Assembly: GCF_012273515.2 (NCBI RefSeq)
Contig: NZ_CP050975.2
Span: 2,976,001 to 3,040,000 of the forward strand
Direction of reading: 5' to 3'
From: Streptomyces sp. RPA4-2
Lineage (GTDB): Bacteria; Actinomycetota; Actinomycetes; Streptomycetales; Streptomycetaceae
Length of the DNA stretch: 64,000 nucleotides
A model generated the notes under the pieces. It did no database searches and was not told the origin of the DNA. It saw only the letters and a list, made by a program, of their open reading frames with translations. The number at the start of each line of letters is the position of its first letter. Positions within the stretch are counted from its first letter, which is position 1. Both the position numbers and the translations under genes were made by a program. Positions 18,720-42,309 of the stretch are shown piece after piece.

Positions 18720-18727
18720 CTACGACG

Positions 18728-23243: not shown

Positions 23244-23364
23244 CGACTTCTCGTCGCTGCGGGCCGCACCGACCCATCAGCACCTCGGGCAAGGTCGCGA
23301 CCACCGGACCGCCGACCACGTGGACGGCCACATCGCGAATGAACCGCCGACATTCGCCTTGTAA
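23244..23364 (+). pseudogene. Tyrosine integrase C-terminal relic (first copy)
   Basis: The peptide FSSLRAAPTHQHLGQGRD followed by ADHVDGHI aligns with the C-terminus of phage/AICE integrases and with the relic at 41944-42142 (HSSVRAALVYQHLVNGRDHE then ADYVDGQI). The catalytic Tyr is replaced (THQHL for VYQHL). It runs directly into a tRNA-like att core and stops at a TAA inside it. It is a dead fragment and marks the left edge of the island. Confidence 0.65.
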
Positions 23365-23365
23365 G
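23341..23365. repeat. att-core relic (tRNA-Val anticodon-arm copy)
   Basis: GAACCGCCGACATTCGCC followed by TTGTAAG matches the tRNA-Val sequence at 42255-42279 with one mismatch (T for C) over 25 bases. It is the outermost recognisable copy of the island attachment core. Confidence 0.65.
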
Positions 23366-23469
23366 TTCGCTCCAACTCGTCCTTGGCATGACCCAGCCGC
23401 ACGCATGCGTGTCGTCTGTGGCCGCCCAATGCCGCAGCGGACCGTGGGCGTTGATGTCAGCGTTGGATG

Positions 23470-23670
23470 TCAGCGGAACAACCCCGGCACGGGGCAGACC
23501 TCCAAGGGCTCGTCCGGTCGATCCGCCCAGTTCCACCAGACGTGCTGACTGGCACACCGCCAGAGCGTTCGACAGGTCCGCCGGCCGTCGTCATTGCGCT
23601 TGGAGAGCACGAGACCACCAGACTTCAGGGGCTGCCTGCATTCGGGGCAGGGCGGAACGTCGCTGGCCAT
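23470..23670 (-). CDS. Small zinc-ribbon protein
   Basis: 66 aa. CPECRQPLKSGG and a later WRCASQHVWWNWADRPDEP supply Cys/His ligands for a zinc ribbon. It resembles short streptomycete proteins of unknown role, in my recollection. Start ATG 23670; ATG 23700 is an alternative in the same frame. It lies in the island flank next to other small minus-strand genes. Confidence 0.65.
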   Translation of the reverse strand: MASDVPPCPECRQPLKSGGLVLSKRNDDGRRTCRTLWRCASQHVWWNWADRPDEPLEVCPVPGLFR

Positions 23671-23713
23671 GCGCCGCACACTAACCCGAGCACCACTCAA
23701 GCGCAGCCCTTGA

Positions 23714-24010
23714 TCAGTGCAGCCGAACTCTCACCTGGTGGTTGTGCTCAACGTGGTCGATGACCTCACCCCGGATGCGTACCCCGAGAGCGGGCGGTCC
23801 CATCCCCTCGGGCATGGCAGTGATCTCGGCAAGCGCCATGGCGTTCGGAACTCCATCGACGCGGATGAAGACGCCGAAGGGCTGACGGGCGACCACTTCT
23901 CCTGCGACGGAAGTTCCCAGAGGGAGAGCTGCAAGCGTCGCCGTCCAGACTTCCTCCGGCGACTGCCCCGGCACGTCGGGGTGGCGCGTTGGCCAGTTGT
24001 ACTCGTCCAT
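23714..24010 (-). CDS. S1-like RNA-binding domain protein
   Basis: 98 aa from ATG 24010. The central part has the S1 OB-fold pattern: LPLGTSVAGEVVARQPFGVF, IRVDGVPNAMALAEI, and GVRIRGEVIDHVEHNHQVRV. The Gly-Glu-Val start, the FGVFI strand and the final VIDH strand are typical. A Pro-rich N-terminus (HPDVPGQSPEEVW) precedes it. It is small and orphan, with no ribosomal-protein context. Confidence 0.8.
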   Translation of the reverse strand: MDEYNWPTRHPDVPGQSPEEVWTATLAALPLGTSVAGEVVARQPFGVFIRVDGVPNAMALAEITAMPEGMGPPALGVRIRGEVIDHVEHNHQVRVRLH

Positions 24011-24043
24011 AGGCAGATCATGACCCGCCGAGGAGTCCGCAAC

Positions 24044-24330
24044 TACAGCGTTGCAGGGGCGGACGTGGTCGGCGACCAGGATGCCCAGGTCACTCCGGCT
24101 GTAGAGCCAGCCCAGCTCATCGGAGCATCTCGACTGCGGAGAGCGGCCGTTGACCGTGATGACCGCACGATGTGGCACGGCCATGGCACGAGGACCGCTT
24201 CGTCCCGAAGCAACTTGGACGAGGGTTCCGCCTTGGGCTGGTGTGCATTTCACCTGCGCTGATAATCCGCAGACGTCCGTACTCGTCTGCGGTTGTGCGT
24301 CGGCGTTGTCACGCAGTTAGACACGCACTG
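24044..24330. repeat. att-adjacent block, copy A
   Basis: About 285 bases align with 27074-27350 at roughly 75-80% identity by eye. They start at a degenerate att core (TTGCAGGGGCGGACGTGG versus TTGTAAGGGCGGACGTGG) and end at CACGCAGTTAGACAC. The block contains one TGGCACG-N4-TGGCACG element (24173-24190). It looks like the trace of an earlier integration. No gene is supported in it. Confidence 0.75.
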
Positions 24331-24368
24331 AAGGTAAGACCTACTGCCTCGGTCTGTGGGTCGACCCC

Positions 24369-25903: not shown

Positions 25904-26707
25904 CGAGATCCTTTCCGGAGGGAGTCTTCATCCATTCCGGAAAGCTAGACGGGTACCAGATGTGGAAGTTCACGTTCCAGGGTAAAGGAAAACCCAAGTG
26001 ACGAACCGTAATGGGACGGGGGTCACAGTTTGGCACCCACCATCCCTCCTGCCATACGCTTCGACCTCACGACCAGGGGATCATGTCAATAATTGAACTT
26101 CCGGGATTCCTTAGTGTGACCATTTAATTTCGGCCAATACGCTCTTGAGTCTGGCTTTGGCCCGTCGCATGGTGCTGACATGGGTGCGCCGTTGGGTATT
26201 TCATCGAGGCGGTGACCTCGATGGTGCAGTGTGTGAGGGCGAGTCACCATCCTGGGGCGGAGCTGGGTGCTGGCATGGTTCCGTAATCGCGCCTGCCGCC
26301 CGGTCGTGGCCAGTTGGGCAAGCTGACTATGGCTGGCGCGCCCATCGGCAATCTGGCTGCCGATTCTTTGATGACCAACACGCCATACCTCTCCTTGGCG
26401 GTGAGGGTGCCCTCTGGGGCCTCCAGGTTGTTCGACGTGGCTGGCCGCGAACCGCAGCGGCGCTGATCTCCTCCGCCACCCACAACTCACCCCGGCTCCC
26501 ATCCCGCGCACGCCACACTCGGCCGGCACTCGCGAATGGCGCCCCCGCCATGTCGGAGCCTGAGCGCCCCCGCCGGAGGTGCGTTCTGACCGGCGGACTC
26601 CGTGTCCGGGTCTCTACTCATGGGCCGTTGCTTGCTGCGGCCCCCGGGGCCGGCCCCCAGGGGTCAGCCCGCGCTCGCGCGGGCACTTGATGAAGTAGGG
26701 AAGGTTC
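25904..26707. other. Degenerate region with possible minus-strand gene remains
   Basis: About 800 bases lack an intact gene. On the minus strand, pieces such as GRVWRARDGSRGELWVAEEI (around 26500) and EGTLTAKERYGVLVIKESAA (around 26390) read like protein but sit in different frames, suggesting a decayed gene. At 26655-26710 a sequence (CGCGCTCGCGCGGGCACTTG and on to AAGTAGGGAA) is repeated at 41150-41190. Confidence 0.45.
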
Positions 26708-26958
26708 CACAGCGAGCGCGGCGGGTGTCCGCACGGTGGCGTTCCCGGCCTCGATCGTGCCCGAGCTGGCGCACCACCTGGCGGAGCACGCGGAGGCAGG
26801 CCGGACCGGGCTCGTCTTCGTCGGGGCCCGCGGCGGTGTCCTCCGACGGAACAACTTCCGGCGCATCTGGCTCCGCGCCCTCGCCGCGGCCGGTCTCGGC
26901 GACGTCCACTTCCACGATCTCCGGCACACCGGGAACACGCTCGCCGCGACCGGCGGCG
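26708..26958 (+). pseudogene. Tyrosine integrase fragment (second copy), truncated at both ends
   Basis: The frame reads VRTVAFPASIVPELAHHLAE, GLVFVGARGGVLRRNNFRRI and HFHDLRHTGNTLAATGGA. This is the region around the H-x-L-R-H-T catalytic motif of phage/AICE integrases. The N-terminal half is missing, and after GGA the sequence jumps directly to the non-coding att-side sequence found after the stop codon in the 42.1-kb copy, deleting the C-terminal 60 or so residues with the catalytic Tyr. Inactive. Confidence 0.85.
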
Positions 26959-26959
26959 C

Positions 26960-27086
26960 AAAGTCCCCGAGAAAGATCAAGGCCCAGGTCTGCGGCTTCG
27001 CACCGGTTGACCTGGGCCTTAGTCGTGTCCTGAGACTGGTGGGCGCGGACGGTTTCGAACCGCCGACATCCGCCTTGTAAGGGCGG
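26960..27086. repeat. attL-like 127-bp direct repeat (island internal boundary)
   Basis: 127 bases match 42158-42284 with about three mismatches. The repeat includes a strong hairpin (26979-27020, AAGGCCCAGGTC paired with GACCTGGGCCTT) and the 3' 47 bases of the tRNA-Val gene (minus strand) ending at TTGTAAGGGCGG. After that point the sequence diverges from the true tRNA, so this is a partial, non-functional tRNA copy left by integration. Confidence 0.9.
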
Positions 27087-27350
27087 ACGTGGTCTGCGGC
27101 ATGTTCGCCCAGGTCACTACGGCCGTAGCGGCAGCCCAGCTGATCGGCGCATCTCGACTGTGGCGACCCGTCGTTGACCGTGGTTGACCGCACGATGTGG
27201 CACGGCTGTGGCACGGGGGCCTCTTCGCCCCGAAGCAACTCGGGAGGCTCGTTGCCCTTGGGCTGGCGCGCCCTTCACCTGCGCTGATGGTCCGCTGACG
27301 TCCACGGTTGTTCGCGGTTGTGCGTCGCGGTTGCCACGCAGTTAGACACT
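27087..27350. repeat. att-adjacent block, copy B
   Basis: Continuation of the 24044-24330 homology on the island side of the att copy. It contains TGGCACG-N4-TGGCACG (27198-27215) and ends CACGCAGTTAGACAC. No gene is supported in it. Confidence 0.7.
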
Positions 27351-27387
27351 CAATGCGCCAGGCACCGGAGCCGTGGCGCAAGAGCTC

Positions 27388-27668: not shown

Positions 27669-27747
27669 ACACAGATGATCTCACCCGCCAGATATGGAGC
27701 ACCGCTTTAGAGATCATCTCAATTGGTGGGTTGGGTAGTCTGTCGGT

Positions 27748-28101
27748 GTGCTGATGGTGGAGCGACTGGTGCCGGACGGGTTGTGGGAGTTGTTCCAGCG
27801 TGTGGTGCCGGAGGCGCCGACGCGTCCGCAGGGAGGTGGGCGGCGTCGTCATGGTGATCGTGAGGTGCTGGCGGCGATCATCTTCGTGGCTACGACGGGC
27901 TGCACGTGGTCGCAGGTTCCGCCGGTGTTCGGGCCGTCCGGAGCGACGGCCCATCGTCGTTTCATGGAGTGGAGCCGGCTGCGGGTGTGGGCGAAGCTGC
28001 ACCGCCTGGTCCTGGACGAACTCGGCGCCCGCGGCGAGCTGGACTGGTCGCGGTGCGCGATCGACTCGGTGAACATGCGGGCCCTGAAAAGGGGGACCTG
28101 A
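27748..28101 (+). pseudogene. IS5-family transposase OrfA (left part of interrupted gene)
   Basis: 117 aa from GTG 27748. DUF4096-type N-terminal transposase domain: LVPDGLWELFQRVVPEAP, RPQGGGRRRHGDREVLAAII and GCTWSQVPPVFGPSGATAHR. The first catalytic Asp is in CAIDSVNMRALK. The end AAAAGGGGGAC is a slippery run; a -1 shift would join the OrfB frame (DLTGPNP), but the IS110 insertion 14 bases later removes the rest. Confidence 0.88.
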
Positions 28102-28535
28102 CGGGTCCGAATCCTAATGGGCAGCGAAGCGAGTCATCGCTATCCGAATCCGGAGTGAGAGCTCTTTCGACAGACCGCGGGACTCGCTTCAGCAGCGGTT
28201 CCGGCCGGAACCGAGACCTCGTCCGCCACCTGGGCAGGAAGCCCCCTACTGAGAGCGATCTGACCCCGGCCGGAACCGTTCCAGTTTCCGAGCTTCGCGA
28301 GCACAACAGCGCCTCGCGAGGACACAAACGCCTCACAACGGGTCTCCGCAGACCCAGTTCAGAACACGTCACCCGACGGTGCGAACCAAGAGCTTCGATG
28401 GTCGTGGCCTGAGCCAACTACACGGAACACCTTTCATCTTGTCGCGAGCCTGAGAGGACGTTAAGTCCCGTTTCTGATGATGTGGTGTCGCCCGTTCGTG
28501 GGTGATGGGACAGTTCCGCCCTCGGGTCATGTCGT

Positions 28536-29348
28536 GTGCATGATGAGGTCGTGGGCATGGAACGGATGCCGTACGCAACCGACTTGTCCGACGAGCAGTG
28601 GGCGTTGATCGAGCCGCTGGTCACCGCGTGGAAGCAGGAGCGGGTGGCGCGGTCGGCGACCGGGGACCCGGGCTCCTGCGACCTGCGCGAGGTAGTGAAC
28701 GCGCTGCTCTACCAGAACCGGACGGGCTGTCAGTGGCGGCTCCTGCCACACGACCTCCCGGCCTGGTCGGCGGTGTTCTACTACTTCACTCTGTGGCGCC
28801 AGGATGGTCTTGACCAGCGGATTCAGGAGATCCTGCGCTGCCAGGTGCGGGAGCGGTCCAGACGATTAGAGGACCCGTCCCTGGTGATCATCGACACCCA
28901 GTCCGTCCGCGTGGCGGCCGGGGTGCCGAAGGAGACGACGGGACTGGACGCGAACAAGAAGACGCCTGGCAGGAAGCGGGGACTCGCAGTCGACGTGCTG
29001 GGCCTGATCATCGGTGTGGTGGTCCTGGCCGCGAGCGCCCACGACAACGAGGCCGGCATCGCCCTGCTGGACCAGGCGGCCGAACGATGTGGGATGCGCC
29101 TGGAAAAGGTCCTGGTCGACCAGGGTTTCAAGGACGCTGTGATCATCCACGGGGCGGTAAAGGACATCACCGTCGAGGTGGTTCGGCGCAACCCCGACGA
29201 CGAAGGCAAGGGCTTCGTCCCGCAACCGAAGCGGTGGGTGGTCGAGCAGGCCAACGGCACCCTCATGCTGCACCGGCGCCTCGCCCGCGACTACGATCAC
29301 CGGCCCGACAACGCGGCTTCCCGCGTCTACTGGGCCTCCACCGCTTAA
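28536..29348 (+). CDS. IS5-family DDE transposase
   Basis: 270 aa from GTG 28536, or more likely ATG 28557 (MERMPYATDLSDEQWALIEP). DDE motifs: LVIIDTQSVRVAAGVPKE (first Asp), KVLVDQGFKDAVIIHGAVKD (second Asp), and a C-terminal WVVEQANGTLMLHRRLARDY with the Glu. In this family the last motif is usually WVVERTFGWL, so NGTLML may be a variant. One TTA leucine codon is present (28866-28868), so full expression may need the bldA tRNA. Confidence 0.9.
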   Translation: MHDEVVGMERMPYATDLSDEQWALIEPLVTAWKQERVARSATGDPGSCDLREVVNALLYQNRTGCQWRLLPHDLPAWSAVFYYFTLWRQDGLDQRIQEILRCQVRERSRRLEDPSLVIIDTQSVRVAAGVPKETTGLDANKKTPGRKRGLAVDVLGLIIGVVVLAASAHDNEAGIALLDQAAERCGMRLEKVLVDQGFKDAVIIHGAVKDITVEVVRRNPDDEGKGFVPQPKRWVVEQANGTLMLHRRLARDYDHRPDNAASRVYWASTA

Positions 29349-29409
29349 GCATGCTCCGCCGCCTCACCACCCCTGCCCCCGCCTGGCGGGACGACGTGGA
29401 GCTGGCCGC

Positions 29410-29808
29410 GTGAACGTCAGCGAACTCCTGCGGCTGCTGCAGGCCGAGCACGATGAGACCGCCGCACGAGCCGACCACCTGCGCGAGCAGATCGTGCGGC
29501 TCACCACCGGCCTCGCCGAGACCGAAGCCCGCCTGGCCGAGCTCACCGCGACTCGCAAGGTCATCGACGGCCTCACCCCGCCCGATCACGCAACGGCCTT
29601 CGTGGAGACCGCCACCGTCTACCAGCGCATCGTGACCACGTTCAACGAGCACCCTGGGAAGGTGTTCCGTGTCCGCGACCTGCACGAGCACCTCGGCCTG
29701 CCCACCGACGAGCCCTCGATCAACGTCACCCGCTCCCGCCTGGGACGACTCGTCCGTCAAGGACTCCTCGAACAACCCGGACGCGGCCGCTACCAGAAAC
29801 GGACTTAA
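29410..29808 (+). CDS. IS passenger: helix-turn-helix-like protein
   Basis: 132 aa, ATG-equivalent GTG 29410. An N-terminal coiled coil (LLRLLQAEHDETAARADHLR, then LAETEARLAELTAT) precedes a winged-helix-like domain: ATVYQRIVTTFNEHPGKVFR, DLHEHLGLPTDEPSINVTRS, RLGRLVRQGLLEQPGRGRYQ. It lies 61 bases after the transposase and inside the inverted repeats, so it moves with the element. It probably binds DNA and may regulate or assist transposition (inference). Confidence 0.8.
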   Translation: MNVSELLRLLQAEHDETAARADHLREQIVRLTTGLAETEARLAELTATRKVIDGLTPPDHATAFVETATVYQRIVTTFNEHPGKVFRVRDLHEHLGLPTDEPSINVTRSRLGRLVRQGLLEQPGRGRYQKRT

Positions 29809-29963
29809 CGCCCTCTGAGAGCTCTCGCGAAGACGAAGGACCGTGCAGTTCGCTGGGGTTGCGAACGGCTGGTGGGATGTTGTGCCTTGAGCACTTCCAT
29901 TAGGGAGCACGCGCACCCTGCACAGGCTCTGGCCTGCGGAAACATCAGAGTGTGAGGGAGAAC

Positions 29964-31231
29964 ATGATGGAGATCGCGGGGTTACCAGTGCCGGTGTTCT
30001 GCGGGGTGGACTGGGCAGAAGACCATCACGATGTCGCTCTCGTCGATGCCGGCGCAACACGGCTCGCCAAGCTGCGAATCAGCGATGATGCAGCCGGATT
30101 CGCACAGCTCACAGCCCTGCTGACGGAGCACGGCGACAGCAAAGATCACAAGATCCCGGTCGCGATCGAGACGTCTCGGGGATTGCTGGTCGCCTGTCTC
30201 CGCGCGACGGGACGCCCTGTGTTCGCGATCAACCCGCTGGCGGTGGCACGCTACAGGGATCGGCACTCGGTCGCGAGGAAGAAGTCGGACGCCATCGACG
30301 CTGCTGTCCTGGCGAACATCCTGCGCACCGACATGGCCGCCCACCGGCCGCTGCCGAAGGACTCCGAGCTGGCACAGGCGATCGCGGTGCTGGCACGAGC
30401 TCAGCAGGACGCGGTCTGGGATCGCGTCCAGGCCCACAACAAGCTCCGCTCGCAGCTGCGCGAGTTCTACCCAGCGATCTTGGCCGCGTTCGCCGACAAG
30501 CGCGGGGGAATCTGCTCACCCGAGGCCCGGACCATCCTGGCCAAGGCGCCGACGCCCGCAGCGGCGGCCCGTCTCACGCGCCGACGTCTCCAGTCCCTGC
30601 TCAGGCAGGCTGGACGCCTGCGCGGCATCGAAGCCGAGGCCGACCGGTTCCACGAGGTTTTCCACCGCGAGTACCTCCACCAACCACCGCAGGTCGAGGC
30701 GGCCTTCGGCCAGCAGGCCACGGCTCTGCTGCGCCAGCTGGAGGCCGCCTGCACCAACGCCGACCAGCTCGAAGCCGCCACCAGGGAGTCCTTCGATCAG
30801 CATCCCGATGCCTCGATCATCTCCAGCTTTCCGGGCCTGGGCTCCTTAACCGGGGCCCGAGTCCTGGCTGAGATCGGCGACGACCGAGCCCGCTTCACTA
30901 CCGCCGGATCGATGAAGGCCTACGCCGGCAGTGCACCAGTCACCCGGGCGAGCGGCAAAAGCTGCACGGTGATGGCCCGGCGGGTCAAGAACCAGCGCTT
31001 GGCGGCTGCTTCTACGTCTGGGCCTTCGCCTCCCTAACCGCGTCGTCGGGCGCCAGAGCCCACTACGACCGCCGCAAGGAGGCTGGTGACCGCCACGTCG
31101 CTGCCCAGCGCAACCTTTTCAACCGCTTCATGGGGATGCTCTTCCACTGCCTCCAGCACGGAGAGCACTACGACGAGGAGACGGCCTTCCCCAACCAACC
31201 CGCAGCACAGCTTCCAGCGGAGGCCGCTTGA
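29964..31231 (+). pseudogene. IS110-family transposase, frameshifted near its C-terminus
   Basis: About 420 codons. The RuvC-like DEDD domain starts VFCGVDWAEDHHDVALVDAG and has VAIETSRGLLVACLRATGRP and RHSVARKKSDAIDAAVLANI. The C-terminal Tnp_20 domain (SIISSFPGLGSLTGARVLAE, GSAPVTRASGKSCTV with the serine region) is present. At about 31003-31008 one base is missing: NQRLAA continues properly as FYVWAFASLTASSGARAHYD and then EETAFPNQPAAQLPAEAA in the shifted frame. A TTA codon lies at 29982. Probably inactive. Confidence 0.88.
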
Positions 31232-31254
31232 CGAGTTACGCGCGTGGGATGTCT

Positions 31255-31689
31255 GTCGACCGGGGCAAGTACGGGTCGAAGATCCATTTGATTACCGAGC
31301 GGACCGGATTACCGATCTCCGTCGGCATCTCCGGCGCTAACCTGCACGACAGTCAGGCGCTCGAGGCGATGGTGCGGGGCATACCGCCCATCCGTTCGCG
31401 CCGCGGTCCCCGCCGGCGCAGGCCGGCCAAGCTCCACGCTGACAAGGCCTACGACAACCGTCACCTGCGGCAATGGTTCCGCTCCCGACGCATCACACCC
31501 CGCATCGCACGCAAGGGCATCGAGTCCTCCGAGCGACTCGGACGCCACCGCTGGACCATCGAACGCACCATGGCCTGGCTCGCCGGATGCCGACGCCTGC
31601 ACCGCCGCTACGAACGCAAAGCCGTCCACTTCCTCGCCTTCGCCAGCATCGCCAGCACCCTCATCTGCTACCGCCGACTCACCAATTGA
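31255..31689 (+). pseudogene. IS5-family transposase OrfB (right part of interrupted gene)
   Basis: Reads VDRGKYGSKIHLITERTGLP, ADKAYDNRHLRQWFRSRRIT (second Asp) and RHRWTIERTMAWLAGCRRLH (Glu of the DDE triad). It ends at 31689 just inside the right inverted repeat. Translation could only start in IS110 sequence (ATG 31228 region), so the protein lacks its N-terminal half. One TTA codon (31309). Confidence 0.88.
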
Positions 31690-31867
31690 GATGACCTCTT
31701 AGGAGCGAGGTTGGGCGACCCTAGGCGTGACCTGGGGATGCCGGCCTTGGGCAGCGTGGGACGGCGCGCACCCAGGCTAAGGCTTGTCCCGTAACGATCT
31801 GAGAGTTCGTCGTCTCCTGCGGCGGGAGGTCGAATCAATCTGGGAAGGCTGGGGCTAGATTCCTCGC

Positions 31868-33019: not shown

Positions 33020-33180
33020 ATCAAGATCATCTCGCCCGTGACCAGCAGTTGCGGGACAGCCCTTAACCTCGGTTCCTCGTGAGTCCCCCGTCCGTTCTGG
33101 CACGGAAGTGGCACGCCTCCGCGACCACTGCACGTCAGTCAGCGCCAAGACCAGGTCAGCGACCCGGTGATCCGAAGGGG

Positions 33181-33540
33181 ATGGTCTCGTTGCAGGATGA
33201 GCGCATCCTCCCTCCCCGACTGCTGTGGCGTGATCCCCGGCCCATCCCCCGGTTCAATCGGCAGGAGCCGGTGACTCAGATTGTCCGTGATCTCGGCTTC
33301 TACGAGCCGAGCGATGAGGACGGCTGCTCAAGGTTCGGGTACTTCTGCCAAGCCCATGACCGCCCCTACTCGCACGAGTCCTGTGGGGAGGGGCCGCATC
33401 TCATCGCCCTGGACTGCCAAGAGCACGGACCCGAGAGTATGTGGCCGCAACCACTCATACTGATGTTCCCAGAAGGGTTCGACCCCCCGCTGAGCGACGC
33501 GCAGCTGGCCTGGGTGCAGGCGGAGGACGACGCTGTCTAG
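33181..33540 (+). CDS. Hypothetical protein
   Basis: 119 aa from ATG 33181 after GAAGGGG. MVSLQDERILPPRLLWRDPR, QIVRDLGFYEPSDEDGCS, a Cys/His-rich stretch (FGYFCQAHDRPYSHESCGEG) that could bind zinc, and a proline-rich end. Its stop codon TAG lies in the CTAG target site of the adjacent IS701 element, so the insertion did not alter the protein. Family not recognised. Confidence 0.65.
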   Translation: MVSLQDERILPPRLLWRDPRPIPRFNRQEPVTQIVRDLGFYEPSDEDGCSRFGYFCQAHDRPYSHESCGEGPHLIALDCQEHGPESMWPQPLILMFPEGFDPPLSDAQLAWVQAEDDAV

Positions 33541-35102
33541 TACTCCAGCAGCGTTTCGCTATCTGGCCTGGTCAGAGGCGTCGTCGGGAGTGTAGTTGGC
33601 TGATGGTAGGTCAGGGGCGGTGTTGGCGGACCGCCCCTCCAACGAGTGAGCTCGTTTCCGGTAGTGGCAGTGGCGGGCGACGGCCTGGCGTCTGCGTCGC
33701 CATCGTGACCAGCTCACCGCGTGAAGGCGAAGCGCTCGGCCTGGCCTTGGGGTGGGGCGAGTTGCCAGGAGCCGGCGGACTTCCGCCACGGTGAGTGGAA
33801 CCAGGGTGTCGGAACCGTTTCTGCACCCCCTTTTGAGGCCGCCTGGGCTGCCGTTGCGGCGAGAAAGGCATGGGCGAGCATGGCCAGGGTGATGTGCCGC
33901 ATCCAGCCGACGTAGCGGCGGACTTCGTACTGGTCCAGGCCGCACTCGTTCTTTGCTGCCTGGAAGCATTCTTCAATGGCCCACCGTCGGCCGGCGACCC
34001 GCACCAGCTGGTCGACGTCCGTGCCCACGGGCGCATAGCCGAGGTAGTAGGCGATTTCATCGGGCCTGGTGACGCTGCGACGGGCCAATGCCCAGCGCTG
34101 GTGTGTGGGCGTCTCGCCGTCGAAGTCCTCGATGGCAGGGAGTTGGACGGCTGCCCAATGGTAGACGCGTGGGCCCTTGGCGCCGTCGCCGCACGAGCGC
34201 TTTTCCCATGCCTCGTCCGGCGCCTGCGTGAAGAGATGGTCGATGCGGCCGAAGCGGGGCACGTGCTGGGACTTCGGGACGGCCAGGACATAGCCGACGG
34301 AGACTTCTTCGAGCATGCGGCGAAAGCGCCATTCCTGGCCGTAGGCGGAATCCGCCGTGACCCAGGCGATGGGCAGTGGCGATGCCAGTGCGCGCAGAAC
34401 GATGGCTCTGGCCAGCTCGCCCTTGGTGGCGAAGGTCCGTTCGTCGGGAATCTTCGCGGCGCGGCAGCGTTGGCGGTCGTCCGTCCAGGACTTGGGGAGA
34501 TACAGCTCCCGGTCGACCAAGGCTCGGCCGCGGGTGGTGGCATAGGCGGCGAAGACGCCGATCTGGCAGTTTTCGGTGCGGCCAGCGGTGCCGGAGTACT
34601 GCCTTTGCACGCCTGCGGACGTGATGCCCTTTTTGACGAAGCCGGTGTCGTCGAGAATGAGAACCCCGCTGTCCTCACCGAGCTTCTCGGCGACGTATAT
34701 CTGCAGGTCATCGCGGACGTTGTCGGCATTCCAGGTTGCCCCGTTCAGCAGCCGCTGGAGGCCGTCAGGGGTGTGGTGGCCTGCGTATTCGGCCAGTTGC
34801 CAGCCGTTCTTGCGGCCGACCGGACCGAGCAAGGCGCGGACGTAGTCGCGCATTCGGCGTCGTAGGTCGGCGCGGCCGAAGCGGTGCCCGATACGGAGAA
34901 AGAGGTCGTTGAGTTCCCGGTCCCAGGCCGCGTCCGCGGGGTCGTCGATCACGCCGGGAGGCTGCCCGGATCACAGCCCAGACAGTTCTCAATCCACTCG
35001 TTGGAGGGGCGGTCCGCCAACACCGCCCCTGACCTACCATCAGCCAACTACACTCCCGACGACGCCTCTGACCAGGCCAGATAGCGAAACGCTGCTGGAG
35101 TA
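33541..35102 (-). mobile_element. IS701-family element with 108-bp perfect inverted repeats
   Basis: The first and last 108 bases (33541-33648 and 34995-35102) are exact reverse complements. CTAG is duplicated on both sides (33537-33540, 35103-35106), the 4-bp target expected of IS701. One transposase gene fills the interior. The perfect ends suggest a recent insertion. Confidence 0.95.
33714..34952 (-). CDS. IS701-family transposase
   Basis: 412 aa. DDE fold of the IS4/IS701 group: SGVLILDDTGFVKKGITSAG (first Asp), IAWVTADSAYGQEWRFRRML (second Asp), and RWAIEECFQAAKNECGLDQY (Glu, the Y-x2-R-x3-E-x6-K-like motif). N-terminal helical domain GRADLRRRMRDYVRALLGPV and NGWQLAEYAGHHTPDGLQRL. The frame is intact and both inverted repeats are perfect, so the element may be active. 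Confidence 0.95.
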   Translation of the reverse strand: MIDDPADAAWDRELNDLFLRIGHRFGRADLRRRMRDYVRALLGPVGRKNGWQLAEYAGHHTPDGLQRLLNGATWNADNVRDDLQIYVAEKLGEDSGVLILDDTGFVKKGITSAGVQRQYSGTAGRTENCQIGVFAAYATTRGRALVDRELYLPKSWTDDRQRCRAAKIPDERTFATKGELARAIVLRALASPLPIAWVTADSAYGQEWRFRRMLEEVSVGYVLAVPKSQHVPRFGRIDHLFTQAPDEAWEKRSCGDGAKGPRVYHWAAVQLPAIEDFDGETPTHQRWALARRSVTRPDEIAYYLGYAPVGTDVDQLVRVAGRRWAIEECFQAAKNECGLDQYEVRRYVGWMRHITLAMLAHAFLAATAAQAASKGGAETVPTPWFHSPWRKSAGSWQLAPPQGQAERFAFTR

Positions 35103-35228
35103 CTAGGCATGATCCGAAAAAGATGCCCTAGCGGCCCCTCGATGCGAACTATGGGCGCGGTGGTCGCTGGGGTCTGCCGGGCACGTCGGCCGATCGCCTG
35201 GGGCTGCTTGCGGTCAGTGGTGGACGCG

Positions 35229-35263: not shown

Positions 35264-35278
35264 AAGCTGTATGGCGTG

Positions 35279-35761: not shown

Positions 35762-35865
35762 GGCTCGCCTTTCGTAGTTTGCGATCAATGGCGGTCACAG
35801 TAGCTATCGGGCACAAGAGGCCCAGGGGCTTGCACCTACCGCGCGGGCGGGCAACCACCGCTTTA

Positions 35866-36722
35866 GACGTCGTTTCCTTTGGCGGGGGTTGTCGTTGTGT
35901 TGGTATGACGAGTCTTGCTGAGCATCTGGTCTCGGATGAGTTGTGGGAGCTGTTTCGGCGGGTGGTGCCGGAGACGGTGGTGGTGCGTCCGCAGGGCGGG
36001 GGCCGTCGGCGGGCCGGGGACCGCGAATGCCTGACCGCGATCGTGTTCGTGGCCACGTCGGGCTGCTCCTGGCGGCAGTTACCGCCGGTGTTCGGTCCGG
36101 CGTGGCCCACCGTCTACCGACGTTTTGCGCGGTGGAGTCAGCAGCGTGTGTGGGCCCGACTGCACCGCGTCATCCTTGACGAGCTGGGTGCCCAGGGGGG
36201 ATTGGACTGGTTACGTTTCGCCGTTGACTCCGTCAGTGTCCGTGCCCTCAAAGGGGGCAGCTGACCGGACCGAATCCGACCGACCGCGGCAAGTTGGGAT
36301 CGAAAATCCACCTCGTCGTCGATCGTGCCGGCCTGCCCGTCTCTGTCGCCATCTCGGCCGCTAACACCCATGACAGTCTGGCCCTGCAACCCCTGGTCAT
36401 GGGGATCCCGCCGGTCCGCAGCCCCCGCGGGCCGCGGCGTCGCCGCCCGGCAAAGCTCCACGGCGACAAGGGCTACGACTATCCCTACCTGCGTCGATGG
36501 CTCCGCGAGCGGAACATCGTTCCTCGCATCGCCCGCCGCGGCGTCGAGAACTCACAACGGCTGGGCCAACACCGCTGGGTGGTTGAGCGCACCATGTCCT
36601 GGCTCGGCGGATGCCGCCGCCTCCACCGACGCTACGAACGCAAGCCCGAACACTTCCTGGCCTTCACCGCCATCGCCACCAGCCTCATCAACCACCGCCG
36701 ACTCACCAAGTGAAACGTCGTC
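35866..36722 (+). mobile_element. IS5-family element (two-ORF type), intact
   Basis: Ends GACGTCGTTTCC (left) and GACGACGTTTCA (right, reverse complement) lie between TTA duplications (35863-35865 and 36723-36725). The right TTA is shared with the next element, so the two are inserted side by side. Confidence 0.88.
35905..36713 (+). CDS. IS5-family transposase OrfAB, joined by -1 frameshift
   Basis: OrfA (35905-36264, 119 aa) reads HLVSDELWELFRRVVPETVV and ends CFAVDSVSVRALKGGS-like. OrfB covers 36265-36713 in the -1 frame (KLGSKIHLVVDRAGLPVSVA, HRWVVERTMSWLGGCRRLHR). The overlap contains AAAGGGGGC, a plausible slippage site, and a -1 shift gives the continuous sequence ALKGGQLTGPNPTDRGKLG. 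The full DDE triad is then present. One TTA codon in OrfA (36211). Confidence 0.85.
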
Positions 36723-36747
36723 TTAGGACTCCTAGCAAAAAGAGTGG

Positions 36748-37641
36748 ATGCCACCTTGGAATGACGGGCAGTCAGCTGGTGTTGTGCCTGCATTCGATGG
36801 ATCGGGGTGGGGTGTGGGGCAGCGGAGGCCGTGGGAGGTCGATGACGGGCTGTGGGAACGGATCACTCCGCTGCTGCCGGTGGTCGAACGCAGACAGCGG
36901 TACCCGGGGCGCAAACGGCTGGAGGACCGGCGGGTCCTCAACGGGATCCTGTTCGTGCTGTACACGGGGATCCCCTGGGAGTTCCTGCCACAGGAGCTGG
37001 GCTACGGTTCGGGGAGCACCTGCTGGCGCAGGTTGCGGGACTGGCATCAGACTGGGGTGTGGCAGGCCCTGCACGAGCTGCTGCTCGCCGAGTTACGGGC
37101 GGCTGACCTGCTGGACTTCACCCGGGCGGCAGTCGACGGCTCCCACCTGCGGGCGATGAAGGGCGGTGCGAAGACCGGGCCGTCTCCAGTGGACCGGGGC
37201 AGGACGGGCAGCAAGCACCACGTGATCGTGGAAGCGCACGGTATCCCGCTCGCCGCCACGCTGACCGGCGGGAACCGTCACGACGTCACCCAGCTCATGC
37301 CCCTGGTCCACGCTGTTCCGGTGGTCAAGGGCAAGCGCGGGCGTCCCCGCCGGCGCCCCGATGTGCTGTACGCCGACCGCAGCTACGACTACGACACCTA
37401 CCGCCGCGACGTGCGCGGCCTGGGCATCCGCCCGGTCATCGCCCGCCGCGGGACCGAGCACGGCTCCGGCCTGGGCGTCCACCGCTGGGTCGTCGAAGCC
37501 GCCTTCGCGCTCCTGCACTGGTTCCGCCGCCTGCGGATCCGCTGGGAGATCCGCGACGACCTCCACGAAGCTTTCCTCACCCTCGGCTGCGCCATCATCT
37601 GCTGGCGCCGCTTGGCGGCAGTTCAGCGCCGCCACTCATAG
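36748..37641 (+). CDS. IS5-family transposase
   Basis: 297 aa. MPPWNDGQSAG leader, then WEVDDGLWERITPLLPVVER, GILFVLYTGIPWEFLPQELG. DDE residues: RAAVDGSHLRAMKGGAKTGP (Asp), DVLYADRSYDYDTYRRDVRG (Asp), GVHRWVVEAAFALLHWFRRL (Glu). The frame is intact. It ends inside the 3' end of the convergent DUF5959 gene, so the last residues (VQRRHS) are shared sequence. One TTA codon (37093). Confidence 0.92.
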   Translation: MPPWNDGQSAGVVPAFDGSGWGVGQRRPWEVDDGLWERITPLLPVVERRQRYPGRKRLEDRRVLNGILFVLYTGIPWEFLPQELGYGSGSTCWRRLRDWHQTGVWQALHELLLAELRAADLLDFTRAAVDGSHLRAMKGGAKTGPSPVDRGRTGSKHHVIVEAHGIPLAATLTGGNRHDVTQLMPLVHAVPVVKGKRGRPRRRPDVLYADRSYDYDTYRRDVRGLGIRPVIARRGTEHGSGLGVHRWVVEAAFALLHWFRRLRIRWEIRDDLHEAFLTLGCAIICWRRLAAVQRRHS

Positions 37642-38310: not shown

Positions 38311-38522
38311 CCTGGGGCCGTCCCTCGCCGCTCGATGATCAGTAGTCGAACGTCGGTGTCCTGACGTGTCCTAGGGCGATGAGCCCCGCTCCGATGACCG
38401 CGACGGTCCACGACTTCGAAGCAGCACCTACTCAGCACCCTGCGGACGCATGCCTCTATCGTGACGCATTTGGAGTGCATGGCCGCCTGCGCCTGCACAT
38501 CGACTGAGGTACGAGGGACGAC

Positions 38523-39119
38523 ATGAGCGACATGTGGGTGGGCGAGAAGGTGCGCTTGCGGGGCGTCGAGCCAGACGACTGGGAGGGCTTCCGCGCGCTT
38601 GCCCAGCACACCGTCGACGTTCGCAACGCGGATCTCGTCGAGCCGCCTCGCTCGAGGGAGAGTTTCCGGTCCTGGACCGCCGAGCGTGCTGGACGTGGGC
38701 CAGGAGGCGAGTCCTTCCGGCTGGTGATCGAGACAGTAGCCGATCAGGCCTTTGCAGGATCTGTGACGGTCGGGGAAACCGACCCCCGCGCAGGACGATT
38801 CAAGGCAGGGATTGCGATCACTCGCGATCATCGCGGCAACGGTTACGCTACTGAAGCCACCGAGCTGGTCCTCACTTACATGTTCGCCGAACAGAGGTAC
38901 AACAAATGCGAAGTCGAGGTCTACGCATTCAACGATGCCTCGCTCGCCCTCTACCGCAAGTTCGGCTTTGTCGAAGAAGGACGGCTCCGGCAGCACGAAT
39001 TCTTCGCGGGCAGCTACCACGACGTCGTGCTGATGGGCATCACCGCCGACGAACACTGGGCCGCTCACCAACGCCCGTCAGTGAGGTCTTCTCGGCAACC
39101 TGACGGTTGCAGTGCGTGA
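38523..39119 (+). CDS. GNAT-family N-acetyltransferase (RimJ/RimL type)
   Basis: 198 aa, ATG 38523 after GAGGG. Acetyl-CoA-binding core: RLVIETVADQAFAGSVTVGE, KAGIAITRDHRGNGYATEAT (the R-x-x-G-x-G/A motif as RDHRGNGYA), LVLTYMFAEQRYNKCEVEVY, FNDASLALYRKFGFVEEGRL. It probably acetylates a protein N-terminus, antibiotic or polyamine. The last about 12 residues are encoded by IS-derived sequence starting at 39082, so the native C-terminus may have been replaced. Confidence 0.9.
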   Translation: MSDMWVGEKVRLRGVEPDDWEGFRALAQHTVDVRNADLVEPPRSRESFRSWTAERAGRGPGGESFRLVIETVADQAFAGSVTVGETDPRAGRFKAGIAITRDHRGNGYATEATELVLTYMFAEQRYNKCEVEVYAFNDASLALYRKFGFVEEGRLRQHEFFAGSYHDVVLMGITADEHWAAHQRPSVRSSRQPDGCSA

Positions 39120-40048
39120 CGACCCGCTGGACGGCAGCATGGTGACCCGACGTCAGGCATGAGTGAAACCCCTGGTAGGAACAGGTCTGCGAAGATCACG
39201 TTCCCGAGCACCAGAGGCTTCACGCATTGACCGGTGTCACCTACACCGCGGTGCTCAATGCCCGTCGGAGACCGCCGAGCACGTCGCGAAACTGCTGCAC
39301 GAGCACCGGGAACGGCTCGGGACTCACAGAGGCACCCGCGCTGGGCGCCTTCAAGCAGGCAGTCCTCGTGCTGCGGTGGTTTATCGACGGTGCCCGGCTC
39401 GTCCAACTGGCCCGGGACAACGGCATCTCGACACCGACCGCCTACCGCTACCTGCACGAGGGCCTGACCGTGCTCGCCGACCACGCCCCGGACCTGTCCA
39501 CCGCCCTGGAGCGCGCGACGGCCGCCGGATACACCCACCTCAACCTGGACGGCACCGTCATCCGTACCGACCGCGTCGCCGCCCCCGGCCCCAACAAAGC
39601 AGACCTCTGGTGGTCGGGAAAGCACCGGCACCATGGTGGCAACGTCCAGGTCATCTCCGCCCCGGACGGCTGGCCGATCTGGGTCTCCCCGGTCCGCCCT
39701 GGCCGCGAACACGACACCACCTGCGCCCGCACTCACGGCCTTGTCGACGCGCTGAACCGCCTCGCCGCCACCTTGGGCATCCCGACCCTGACCGACCTCG
39801 GCTACGAGAACGCCGGCCCTGGCTTCCGTCACCCCGCCAAGAAGCCGCAGGGACGCGAACTCGACCTCAAGCAGAAGACGTTCAACAAGGTGATCCGCGG
39901 CATCCACGGCGTCGCCGAACGTGCCAATGCCCTGTTCAAGGTCACCTTCAAGGCCCTGCGCAGAGTCAGCCTCGACCCCGGCAGCATTACCCCAATCGCC
40001 CGAGCCGCCCTCGCCCTGCTCCAGATGGAGCACGGCCGCACCACCTGA
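39082..40048 (+). mobile_element. IS5-like element (ends not fully resolved)
   Basis: The first 200 bases are present again in inverted orientation at 40538-40738. The left boundary is set where the two copies start to match (39082). The right end could not be fixed; it lies shortly after the transposase stop at 40048. The second copy is only the left-end fragment. Confidence 0.6.
39227..40048 (+). pseudogene. IS5-family (DDE_Tnp_4) transposase with two compensating deletions
   Basis: 273 aa nominal. The start MTGVTYTAVLNA and the body FKQAVLVLRWFIDGARLVQL, TAYRYLHEGLTVLADHAPD, HLNLDGTVIRTDRVAAPG (Asp), TLTDLGYENAGPGFRHP (Asp) and VAERANALFKVTFKALRRVS (Glu) are in one frame. Between about 39260 and 39340 the conserved sequence SETAEHVAKLLHEHRERLGT is in another frame: one G is missing near 39265 (present in the inverted copy at 40550) and two bases near 39340. 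Translation is not stopped but about 26 residues are wrong, so activity is doubtful. Confidence 0.8.
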
Positions 40049-40075
40049 ACGAAGATCACGAACCGTCACGAGACG

Positions 40076-40312
40076 TTACCCGCGAAGGTTCAATCGCTGG
40101 ACGGCGAACAGTTCCAGGTGTGCGCAGTTCGGGCAGCGGAAGGCATCGATCTGCCATTGCGGCAGGCCCCGCGTCTTAGCTATGCCCATTATGCCCCGAT
40201 CAAGGAGGCTTCCGAACCATCGCGCGTACCCGCGGGCGCCGCTGCCACTGTCACTGACAAAGCCCTGCTCAAGCCCGACCTGACCGCATTGGGTGCACCG
40301 CATGTTGTTCAT
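40076..40312 (-). CDS. Small zinc-ribbon-like protein
   Basis: 78 aa, ATG 40312 or 40303. MRCTQCGQVGLEQGFVSDSG, a basic middle (FGSLLDRGIMGIAKTRGLPQ) and QIDAFRCPNCAHLELFAVQ give two C-x-x-C pairs for one zinc site. I recall it as a small streptomycete protein of unknown role. It converges on the transposase. Confidence 0.72.
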   Translation of the reverse strand: MNNMRCTQCGQVGLEQGFVSDSGSGARGYARWFGSLLDRGIMGIAKTRGLPQWQIDAFRCPNCAHLELFAVQRLNLRG

Positions 40313-40537
40313 CGAGGGAGTGTAAGTGGGGGCCGGGGGTTGATGCTGGTGAGTTTCGCGTATTCAACTGTCGCGAGTTCCCCAGGTCATTACCTGCAGA
40401 GAGTGACGTTCGTTCTTGGTCGGCGGGTGCATCGTCGACGGATGAACATGCGAGCTCACCAGTCTCCGTAGTGGCGGCCCGGGACGCTCGGGCCGACGAG
40501 CTCCCCGGCGGGTTGTGGGCCAGGCGTCATCACTCGC

Positions 40538-40738
40538 TGCTCGGCGGTCTCCCGACGGGCATTGAGCACCGCGGTGTAGGTGACACCGGTCAATGCGTGA
40601 AGCCTCTGGTGCTCGGGAACGTGATCTTCGCAGACCTGTTCCTACCAGGGGTTTCACTCATGCCTGACGTCGGGTCACCATGCTGCCGTCCAGCGGGTCG
40701 TCACGCACTGCAACCGTCAGGTTGCCGAGAAGACCTCA
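40538..40738 (-). repeat. Inverted copy of the 39082-39281 IS end
   Basis: 201 bases are the reverse complement of the left end of the neighbouring IS, including the first 25 codons of its transposase, in the correct frame. With the copy at 39082 it forms a large inverted repeat around the transposase and zinc-ribbon genes. Confidence 0.88.
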
Positions 40739-41320
40739 GTGCGCTGACTGCAGGGCAGCCTGATCACGACAGCAAACCGGGCCCTTCTGGTCCGCGCCTG
40801 TCAGGGACACGGCTTCAAAGGGTCCTCGCCGACTCGCGAGGGGCACGGCCGGCTTGTGGTCGACGACGGCGAGAGGTTGGCTCCGAGACTTTGGGCGGGA
40901 GCTGCCATGGGGCGAGTGATCATGGCCCCTTAAGCTTCCGGCGAGTCGGGCAGTCTGTGGACCTGCCCGTTAAAGCACGACGTTGGGGCCATGATCTTCG
41001 AGGCTCGCCCCATGGTGGCTGCCTAAAGTGTCGGAGCCAACCAGCCCATCGGCGTGTTTACTGTTCTCGATTCGGGGCCGTACCCCGCTGCGGCCCCAGG
41101 GCTCGGCCCTGGCGCCGAAGGCGCAGAGGGGCCGAAGCCCAGGGGCCATCCCGCGCTCGCGCGGGCACTTGATGAAGTAGGGAAAGTTCTATCCCGCTGG
41201 GATGAGGCGTCTATGTCTTGTCTCGGTTGATGCTTGGCACCAGGAGGCTGGCGAGCAAAGCGCGTGGCCGTCCATGGGCAGCCGTGATCCCTAGACATCA
41301 GCGGTCGCTAGCCTGTTCGC
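40739..41320. other. Non-coding island segment with an interrupted palindrome
   Basis: 582 bases with no supported gene. ATGGGGCGAG and GATCATGGCCCC (40907-40929) are repeated in reverse complement at 40985-41013. At 41150-41190 it shares CGCGCTCGCGCGGGCACTTG and what follows with 26670-26705. Probably ends of lost mobile elements. Confidence 0.6.
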
Positions 41321-41845
41321 GTGATTCCTACCGATCGGCAGTTCCCTGCCGCCCTCGCCGCCGCGCTGGCGACTCCGTTCAAATACAACGACGGCAAGGG
41401 GGTCGACTTCGAACCCTTCCAAAGCTTCCTGTCTGCGGAGGAGACCACCGACTGGTTCCGGGCCTGGACTGGCAACGAAGAGCTGAGCGGTGACAGTTTC
41501 CGCGCGTTCGGCCAGGACGGCACGGGCGGATACGCGGCGTTCTGGCTGATCCGGCCGAGCTGCCCACTCGTCGATCAGCCCGTGGTTTTCCTCGGTTCCG
41601 AGGGCGAGACTGGTGTCGTGGCACGTGATCTGGGTGCCCTCTTGTGGCTGCTGGCTGGTGGCTTCGGCCCTTGGGAAGCCGCCGCCTCGGAAGAACCCGA
41701 CTGGACGCCGTCCCCAAACCGCGAACTGATGGCCGTCGCGGAACGATTCGCGGCCGACCGGCAGCAGTCGGCAGCAGTCGTCATTGAGCAGGCGACGCGG
41801 GAGTTCCCCGACTTCGATGACACCATCATGGCGCTCTGCCGCTGA
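41321..41845 (+). CDS. SUKH (SMI1/KNR4)-like protein, probable immunity protein
   Basis: 174 aa, GTG 41321. The SUKH plan is visible: DFEPFQSFLSAEETTDWFRA, GDSFRAFGQDGTGGYAAFWL, PVVFLGSEGETGVVARDLGA and LLWLLAGGFGPWEAA, the conserved D-L-x-x-x-L-x-x-L-A region. Bacterial SUKH proteins neutralise toxins of polymorphic/contact-dependent systems (family knowledge). No toxin gene is next to it. It has lost its neighbour or acts on external toxins. Confidence 0.78.
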   Translation: MIPTDRQFPAALAAALATPFKYNDGKGVDFEPFQSFLSAEETTDWFRAWTGNEELSGDSFRAFGQDGTGGYAAFWLIRPSCPLVDQPVVFLGSEGETGVVARDLGALLWLLAGGFGPWEAAASEEPDWTPSPNRELMAVAERFAADRQQSAAVVIEQATREFPDFDDTIMALCR

Positions 41846-41943
41846 CTGAGCTCGCATACCGTCATCCAGTGACCCCCGAACAACCAGAGATCGTCTAGGT
41901 CCAACGTCAAGCTTCTGGTGAAGCCGAACCGTCAAGACTCAGG

Positions 41944-42142
41944 CCGGCACACCGGGAACACCCTCGCCGCGACCGGTGGCGCCACCACCCGCGAGTTGAT
42001 GCAACGGATGGGCCACTCGTCGGTGCGGGCCGCGCTGGTCTATCAGCACCTCGTCAACGGGCGCGATCACGAGATCGCCGACTACGTGGACGGTCAGATC
42101 CGGAAGGTGAAGCGACCTCCGCGCGGACCATCTGGCACGTGA
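41944..42142 (+). pseudogene. Tyrosine integrase C-terminal relic (third copy)
   Basis: Reads RHTGNTLAATGGATTRELMQ, RMGHSSVRAALVYQHLVNGR, EIADYVDGQIRKVKR and stops at 42140. It contains the R-H-T and the catalytic Tyr (VYQHL) of the integrase and continues where the 26.7-kb copy was cut. The N-terminal part before RHT is missing; the preceding residues come from unrelated sequence. It is next to the tRNA att site, as expected for an element's integrase. Confidence 0.88.
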
Positions 42143-42157
42143 GTGGCACGGCGGCGA

Positions 42158-42284
42158 AAAGTCGCCGAGAAAGATCAAGGCCCAGGTCTCCGGCTTCGCA
42201 CCGGTTGACCTGGGCCTTAGTCATGTCCTGAGACTGGTGGGCGCGGACGGTTTCGAACCGCCGACATCCGCCTTGTAAGGGCGG
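42158..42284. repeat. attR-like 127-bp direct repeat with the functional tRNA
   Basis: Matches 26960-27086 with about three mismatches. It includes the terminator hairpin and the 3' half of tRNA-Val, as left by integration into a tRNA gene. Confidence 0.9.
42177..42218. terminator. Strong hairpin between integrase relic and tRNA
   Basis: AAGGCCCAGGTC pairs perfectly with GACCTGGGCCTT around an 18-base loop. It lies 20 bases after the tRNA 3' end (minus strand) and 35 bases after the integrase stop, so it can serve both. The same hairpin is in the 26.98-kb copy. Confidence 0.8.
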
Positions 42285-42309
42285 CGCTCTACCACTGAGC
42301 TACGCGCCC
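42238..42309 (-). tRNA. tRNA-Val (anticodon TAC)
   Basis: 72 bases, no encoded CCA. Acceptor GGGCGCG pairs with CGCGCCC, D-arm GCTCAGTGGTAGAGC, anticodon stem CCGCC/GGCGG around CTTACAA giving anticodon TAC (codon GTA), and T-arm GGCGG TTCGAAA CCGTC. It is the attachment site of the island: its 3' part is copied at 27040-27086 and partly at 23341-23365. Confidence 0.96.

What the first reader, a model, noticed from the sequence alone, without database searches (positions are those of the whole stretch)
23244..42309. Decayed multi-layer integrative island at tRNA-Val(TAC)
The tRNA-Val gene (42238-42309) has its 3' end duplicated at 26960-27086 inside a 127-bp direct repeat, and a shorter, degraded copy at 23341-23365. 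Three different truncated tyrosine-integrase relics sit next to these: 23244-23364, 26708-26958 and 41944-42142. Each lost a different part: the second lacks the Tyr-bearing C-terminus, the third lacks everything before RHT, and the first is degraded. No intact integrase exists in the island. This indicates at least two or three successive integrations at one site followed by collapse, leaving a trapped cargo.
Basis: partly seen in the sequence, partly recalled or inferred. Interest (0 to 1): 0.75.

Follow-up and report, generated by a model that had tools for sequence, protein, structure and literature searches.

The report
Decayed pile-up of mobile elements
A Streptomyces chromosome holds the rotted remains of at least three related mobile DNA elements that inserted one after another at the same transfer-RNA gene, a known kind of event, but the remains still carry the element ends and a conserved folded DNA segment whose job is not yet known.

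Summary
Relatives at this tRNA carry intact RepSA-Xis-Int elements, and S. albicerus has a complete 9.1-kb att-P'arm-hairpin-TraB-RepSA-Xis-Int-att copy: a pSAM2-type AICE. The island is larger than stated: relatives place the native genes (16242-17539) directly before the tRNA, so foreign DNA spans about 17540-42234. Of 100 relative loci, 53 are empty or nearly so, 24 occupied, 23 undetermined. AICE accretion and decay are published, so this is a new member of a known kind. Additions: 27037-42284 keeps both att ends and putative arm sites without tra, RepSA, xis or a whole int; in 6 of 12 loci with truncated int of this lineage a conserved AICE segment lies close upstream of int; and that segment includes a hairpin (40875-41042) with compensatory changes in 20 of 52 pairs, on repSA's strand wherever both were seen in one element.

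The parts
16242..16586 (+). native chromosomal gene that directly precedes tRNA-Val in empty relatives
   Evidence: tblastn hit ends 45 bp to 1.8 kb before tRNA-Val in the 53 of 100 relative loci counted as empty; no Pfam family
16943..17539 (+). native gene that lies between the preceding gene and tRNA-Val in some relatives; last chromosomal base about 17539
   Evidence: both genes then tRNA in L134 and L135, second gene then tRNA in L136
17540..23240 (.). left part of the foreign DNA: two genes found elsewhere in relatives plus a ferredoxin-reductase/P450 pair
   Evidence: 17852-18568 is 91% and 88% identical to copies elsewhere in G236 and G024; 18570-19288 is 87% to a copy in G236 about 30 bp from a P'-arm sequence; 20123-23131 is 92% to G033; Pfam
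23251..23334 (+). integrase relic 1 (residues 337-364 of 377)
   Evidence: tblastn E 1e-5, 64%; 79-82% nucleotide identity to relatives
23341..23365 (+). att relic 1 (tRNA positions 21-45, one mismatch in the anticodon-stem part)
24048..24355 (+). P'-arm of element A1, with putative arm-type repeat at 24173-24190; att core lost
26646..26707 (+). piece of the conserved AICE segment (matches 41128-41189 at 90%), 7 bp before integrase relic 2
26715..26958 (+). integrase relic 2 (from residue 244 to about 325); 3' part missing between two GGCGGCG repeats
   Evidence: junction read
27037..27086 (+). att copy 2, 50 of 50 identical to tRNA-Val 3' half
27087..27380 (+). P'-arm of element A2 with putative arm-type repeat 27198-27215
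27709..31699 (+). IS4/5-type element with 26-bp inverted ends (88%), apparently split by an insertion that holds a second IS4/5 transposase, an AbiEi-like regulator and an IS110 transposase
32252..33148 (-). DDE transposase
   Evidence: Pfam
33534..35109 (-). IS701 element with 115-bp inverted ends
   Evidence: NCBIfam IS701, 443 bits against cut-off 150
35779..37641 (+). two IS4/5-type transposases, one in two frames
38523..39119 (+). GNAT-family acetyltransferase (cargo)
   Evidence: Pfam
39079..40741 (+). DDE_Tnp_4 element with 190-bp inverted ends
40875..41042 (+). conserved AICE hairpin
   Evidence: DNA fold of 40870-41050 z -10.8; 20 of 52 pairs with compensatory change; in complete elements
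41072..41240 (+). second conserved AICE noncoding segment
41321..41845 (+). 174-aa reading frame, no family
41945..42139 (+). integrase relic 3 (residues 313-377)
42133..42150 (+). putative arm-type repeat over the int stop codon
42160..42234 (-). element-borne hairpin just downstream of tRNA-Val, terminator-like
   Evidence: RNA fold -39.9 kcal/mol, z -5.1; terminator function inferred
42235..42309 (-). tRNA-Val(TAC), intact; 3' part is the att core

Best explanation
At least three pSAM2-type actinomycete integrative and conjugative elements (AICEs) with related tyrosine integrases integrated one after another at the 3' end of tRNA-Val(TAC). Each event used a core that ends at the last base of the 7-nt anticodon loop and rebuilt the tRNA with the element's own 3' half and terminator. 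The array then decayed. The left element lost its outer att site and nearly all of its integrase. The middle element (A1) was cut to a 3-kb stub with part of an integrase. The right element (A2) lost everything from the conserved hairpin segment to integrase residue 313, including tra, rep and xis, and filled with insertion sequences. Shown: the repeats, relics, empty sites, and the intact relatives with their gene order. Inferred: that tra, rep and xis were once here, crossover in the anticodon loop, arm-site function, terminator function, and the order of events. The A2 segment keeps core plus P'-arm on the left and int-side arm plus core on the right, so it works like, at most, a cis-mobilisable relic that an incoming AICE with this integrase might move. 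That step is not shown.
For: Repeat and relics. Empty site with native genes directly before tRNA-Val. G232 (L085): att relic at 9711, RepSA (PF20199, E 1.6e-149), HTH_17 Xis, Int of 377 aa, tRNA-Val. S. albicerus (L242): att 2155, arm motif 2316, hairpin 3250, TraB homologue 5390, RepSA 8422, Xis 9789, Int 10001, arm motif 11125, att 11227; the whole tRNA is not in the fetched stretch. Tandem arrays in other species: G024 with three extra att copies, G064 with two and three integrase pieces. P'-arms of A1 and A2 only 81-88% alike, against simple duplication. Arm motif TGGCACGNNNGTGGCACG: five sites at 0-1 mismatch, all + strand and all inside the island, against 0.53 expected at up to 2 mismatches, where 8 were found; in the 12 occupied relative loci scanned mostly after the core and at the int stop (L045 has none), and in none of the four empty loci scanned.
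Against: No RepSA, xis or TraB-like remnant was found in the window, so the class is assigned from relatives of the integrase, the att sites and noncoding segments. The outermost left att was not found, so how 17540-23240 entered is not shown. Two arm-like motifs at 33098 and 38292 have no att core beside them and are unexplained. The D3 repeats are 97% alike, which could also come from gene conversion.
Confidence: 0.93

Rival explanations
1. One element integrated once; the 136-bp repeat and the second integrase piece arose by later duplication or rearrangement inside the island.
For: The 39-bp overlap between relics 2 and 3 is 95% identical and the 136-bp repeat is 97%; relics 2 and 3 cover complementary parts of one integrase.
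Against: The two P'-arms differ by 12-19%; a third, more diverged integrase and att relic exists; 5 of 100 relative loci have two or more extra att copies at this tRNA; the 136-bp segment is 89-96% alike over its matched part even in other species (L031, L081, L082, L083, L085), so its high identity is expected from constraint.
Confidence: 0.05
2. The repeats were left by prophages or T4SS-type ICEs that share the tRNA, not by AICEs.
For: Other integrase lineages (26-30% identity) also sit near this tRNA in L042, L045, L089 and L091.
Against: All three relics match one AICE integrase; the hairpin and segment 41072-41240 occur with RepSA and TraB; no phage or T4SS gene was seen among the reading frames scanned (not every frame was scanned).
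Confidence: 0.01
3. The left 17540-23240 stretch is an unrelated later or earlier insertion, and the AICE array starts only at 23.2 kb.
For: No att was found near 17540; the P450 pair is found outside this tRNA in relatives.
Against: A homologue of 18570-19288 lies about 30 bp from a P'-arm sequence in G236, as cargo of such an element would; integrase relic 1 at 23251 faces the att at 23341 and needs an element to its left.
Confidence: 0.3

Closest known systems
pSAM2-type AICEs (RepSA family)
   Same: tyrosine integrase at a tRNA 3' end; gene order att, tra, rep, xis, int, att in complete relatives (general order in passages of PMC3218068); RepSA Pfam family
   Different: the window copies lack tra, RepSA, xis and any whole int
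AICE accretion and decay in a Streptomyces population (PMC9513070; passages read)
   Same: several elements in one tRNA, remnants with a partial integrase and direct repeats, a family at tRNA-Val with 46-nt repeats
   Different: there the accretion case is tRNA-Arg, and intact elements coexist; here no intact element remains in the island and insertion sequences dominate the right segment
CIMEs (cis-mobilisable elements of Streptococcus thermophilus; recalled, only a citation of Pavlovic 2004 was seen)
   Same: att ends on both sides, no site-specific recombination or conjugation genes
   Different: mobilisation not shown; AICE rather than T4SS-type parent; heavy IS load
Tandem AICEs Fean5518/Fean5534 of Frankia and Sav3708/Sav3728 of S. 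avermitilis (PMC3218068; passages)
   Same: tandem elements in one tRNA
   Different: those are listed as AICEs with their genes, and the Frankia pair was shown to excise

Membership tests
AICE (functional) | integrase gene, whole | tested here: not met
   three fragments only
AICE (functional) | FtsK/TraB-type translocase | tested here: not met
   no tblastn match with one TraB homologue, best E 0.47
AICE (functional) | replication initiator of RepSA type | tested here: not met
   no RepSA match in the window below E 0.4 and none there in the genome search; RepAM and Prim-pol, which other AICEs use, were not searched
AICE relic (decayed) | site-specific att repeats of a tRNA 3' end | tested here: met
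AICE relic (decayed) | integrase relics of a lineage that elsewhere accompanies RepSA and Xis at the same site | tested here: met
AICE relic (decayed) | insert absent in relatives (empty attB) | tested here: met
   53 of 100 relative loci with the native gene within 2.2 kb and no extra att, int or rep
CIME | attL and attR on both sides with no site-specific recombination or transfer genes | tested here: met
   27037-27380 and 42133-42284, no such genes whole
CIME | mobilised by a related element in cis or trans | not testable with these tools
   needs an excision assay
pSAM2 arm-type sites | 17-bp arm sequence GTCACGCAGTTAGACAC (recalled) | tested here: inconclusive
   present at 24308 (0 mismatches) and 27333 (1 mismatch); the sequence was found in no held paper, so the link to pSAM2 rests on recall

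The most novel reading that the evidence does not exclude
The right segment is not only wreckage but a non-autonomous AICE satellite. It keeps the DNA that such an element would need in cis (both att cores, both arm regions and a conserved hairpin that may be the single-strand or transfer origin) while all proteins come from an incoming AICE. The recurrent loss of tra, rep, xis and the 5' part of int between the same noncoding region and int in several species would then be a route by which AICEs turn into satellites.
Probability: 0.1. Interest if true: 0.65.

Novelty: new member of a known kind. Interest (0 to 1): 0.36.

Why it matters
It shows, with empty, intact and decayed states side by side, how AICEs pile up and rot at one tRNA, and that the decay often follows one path: loss from a conserved noncoding region into int. 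The covarying hairpin is a concrete candidate for an uncharacterised cis site of RepSA AICEs and can be tested directly. The array itself is an ordinary case of published accretion.

Tried and rejected
Rfam scan of 16000-43500: only the tRNA itself is credible.

Idea that integration adds CCA to a CCA-less tRNA gene: CCA is encoded in 21 of 25 occupied loci (window included) and 23 of 53 empty ones, Fisher p 0.001, but on a tree only 8 independent pairs exist and on average 1.5 are informative; not claimed.

Idea that the anticodon-stem allele filters hosts: CCGCC 17 occupied (window included) and 8 empty, CCTGC 2 and 44, p 1e-8; more than one exact core copy in 9 of 38 CCGCC genomes and 3 of 130 CCTGC genomes, of 392 searched (p 9e-5). 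The labels are strongly clustered on the tree and only 4 (starred) or 5 independent pairs exist, median p 0.5, and p 1 when occupancy is judged by extra att copies alone; left as an observation. The occupied count also leans on an integrase query taken from a CCGCC host, and the first 20 loci were chosen from a ranking that favoured occupied sites. Undetermined loci (23 of 101) and four other stem alleles were dropped before the 2x2 counts of alleles; 25 of 101 loci were dropped before the tree, which holds 76.

Presence or absence among conspecific strains could not be tested: no close relative appeared (best flank identity 77-79%).

The link of 24308 to a pSAM2 arm site is recalled and found in no held paper.
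Full report
OBSERVATION. The window lies in a 9.86-Mb single-contig genome. ARAGORN finds one tRNA in the window, tRNA-Val(TAC) at 42235-42309 on the minus strand. A 136-bp stretch, 26951-27086, repeats at 42149-42284 at 97%, and its last 50 bases equal the tRNA 3' half. A 25-bp core also lies at 23341-23365 with one mismatch; no shuffle of 100 gave any match at up to three mismatches. Three integrase fragments are present, covering residues 337-364, 244-327 and 313-377 of a relative's 377-aa protein.

WHAT WAS MISSED. A second repeat, 24048-24355 against 27072-27380 at 81-88% (D4, D5, D10), directly follows the att core in the second case. Similar sequence follows att cores in G024 and G236, so it is the far arm of the att site. 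The short motif TGGCACGNNNGTGGCACG occurs five times at 0-1 mismatch, always on + and always inside the island; at up to two mismatches there are eight in the window against 0.53 expected. In the 12 occupied relative loci scanned it lies mostly after the core and at the int stop codon (L045 has none; L031 and L089 have further ones), and in none of the four empty loci scanned. I take it for the integrase's arm-type site; that is inference. Two of the five, at 33098 and 38292, have no core beside them and belong to a 134-bp sequence with copies in G024 and G016; they stay unexplained.

EXTENT. In relatives with an empty site the gene matching 16242-16586 is followed within 45 bp to 1.8 kb by tRNA-Val. 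In G221 and G148 a second gene, matching 16943-17539, stands between them. The native chromosome therefore runs to about 17539 and the foreign DNA is about 17540-42234, 24.7 kb. The left part holds two genes whose best copies among 295 genomes lie on other contigs of G236 and G024, and a ferredoxin reductase and P450 pair 92% identical to G033 and 91% to G279. Those species are not close to the window: their tRNA-Val flanks match at 72% (G279) or not at E 1e-60 (G033). One of the left genes sits about 30 bp from a P'-arm sequence in G236, which fits element cargo.

WHAT THE ELEMENTS WERE. G232 (L085) carries at the same tRNA a diverged att copy, RepSA (E 1.6e-149), an HTH_17 Xis and the intact integrase. 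The genome-contig scan returned 78 loci; ten of them and one own-genome locus were examined. All ten have int, xis, rep and a TraB homologue in the same order. S. albicerus (L242) shows a complete element of 9.1 kb between att copies: att, arm motif, hairpin, TraB homologue, RepSA, Xis, Int, arm motif, att; its right att matches only the first 48 tRNA bases and another integrase lies beyond it, so it too seems to be in an array. The window elements are decayed relatives of this pSAM2-type AICE. The own genome also holds an intact RepSA-Xis-Int set at 4071458-4074092 beside tRNA-Arg(CCT), whose integrase is 57-58% identical.

HOW IT WORKED AND DECAYED. In the 101 loci examined (100 relatives and the window), the match of 13 of 25 extra att copies ends at tRNA position 45, the last base of the 7-nt anticodon loop TTGTAAG, and 5 end at position 50; strand exchange in that loop is inferred. 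The element brings a strong hairpin just downstream of the rebuilt tRNA, probably a terminator. Counting loci, 24 of 100 relatives are occupied by extra att, int or rep, 53 are empty by a gap under 2.2 kb with none of these, and 23 cannot be judged; 17 of 100 have at least one extra att and 5 of 100 at least two. In one search, 12 loci (window included) have truncated integrases of this lineage. In 6 of the 12 a conserved noncoding segment (hairpin or 41072-41240 type) lies within 1.6 kb upstream of the truncated int with no tra, rep or xis match between: the window (twice, at residues 244 and 313), G024 (125), G064 (twice, 125 and 355), G236 (192), G291 (71) and G119 (159). In the other 6 (L039, L184, L190, L193, L200, L208) no such segment was found near. 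In complete elements the hairpin stands 6.6-8.7 kb before int (L242, L245, L246, L249). So deletion between this region and int looks like a repeated way to die, though not the only one. The IS load of A2 (IS4/5, IS110, IS701 and other DDE transposases) is separate.

IS THE A2 SEGMENT STILL MOVABLE? It keeps core plus P'-arm on one side and arm motif plus core on the other, so a related integrase might recognise it. No test was possible. The idea that direct repeats of remnants allow later cis-mobilisation is already in PMC9513070 (passages).

THE HAIRPIN. 40870-41050 folds with z -10.8 as DNA, the stem being 40875-41042. Thirty copies were aligned: the window and 29 of 36 located stretches; the seven left out were two of the window itself, three repeats of copies already in, a second copy in one plasmid record, and L082. 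Of 52 pairs 20 have compensatory changes, against a mean of 8.0 in 500 shuffles, none reaching 20. Slid versions pair in 30-43% of cells against 94.6%, and have 9-15 pairs and 12-19 cells with changes on both sides against 20 and 61. Related sequences can exceed such shuffles without structure, but the slid control and the changes UA/CG, UA/AU and GC/CG in 8-9 sequences each are clear. Of 20 loci, 19 have the hairpin; RepSA was found in 9 of these, each time downstream on the same strand, and in 10 no RepSA lay within the fetched stretch. The same strand and order hold in 3 of 3 plasmid-form records (one of them has a serine-type recombinase instead of a tyrosine integrase), in 4 of 4 of the ten named loci that have it, and in L042, the one tRNA-Val locus with both in one att interval. 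A strand-specific single-strand origin, or a transfer site, is my best guess; a small transposon-like repeat is less likely given the place and strand, but the 10 loci without RepSA in reach keep it open. Five full-text searches were made in all; the two for origins and hairpins listed no paper whose title or shown abstract describes it, which does not show that it is unpublished.

VERDICT. The finding is real, under-drawn on its left side, and of a known kind: AICE accretion with decay (PMC9513070 and PMC3218068, passages read). It earns modest interest, raised a little by the recurrent deletion path and the conserved hairpin.

Noticed in passing
window 40875-41042: Conserved 168-nt hairpin of RepSA AICEs with compensatory changes in 20 of 52 pairs, on the strand of repSA wherever both were seen in one element; candidate single-strand or transfer origin.
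   Followed up: yes
tRNA-Val(TAC), window 42235-42309 and 100 relative loci: The anticodon-stem allele of extra att copies equals that of the resident tRNA in 24 of 25 cases, and the CCGCC allele is far more often occupied than CCTGC; clustering on the tree leaves this unproven.
   Followed up: partly
window 23341-23365: The one att copy with another stem allele (TCGCC), which is the resident allele in G014 and G010; either a point change or a trace of another host.
   Followed up: no
window 31697-31780 with 33060-33117, and 38178-38311: A 134-bp repeat ending in the arm-type motif but without att core; three stretches in the own genome, four in G024, one in G016, among 41 genomes.
   Followed up: partly
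window 20123-23131: Ferredoxin reductase and P450 pair 90-92% identical to copies in not closely related species (G033, G279, G016), so probably exchanged; no tRNA within the fetched stretches of about 20 kb around those copies.
   Followed up: partly
L042, L045 (other integrases at the same tRNA): Integrases only 26-30% identical to the window lineage sit at the same tRNA-Val beside RepSA proteins 75-83% identical, which looks like a module swap without change of site.
   Followed up: no
G000:C1:4065000-4084000 (L176): Intact RepSA-Xis-Int set next to tRNA-Arg(CCT) in the window's own genome, with the hairpin 98% identical to the window copy.
   Followed up: partly
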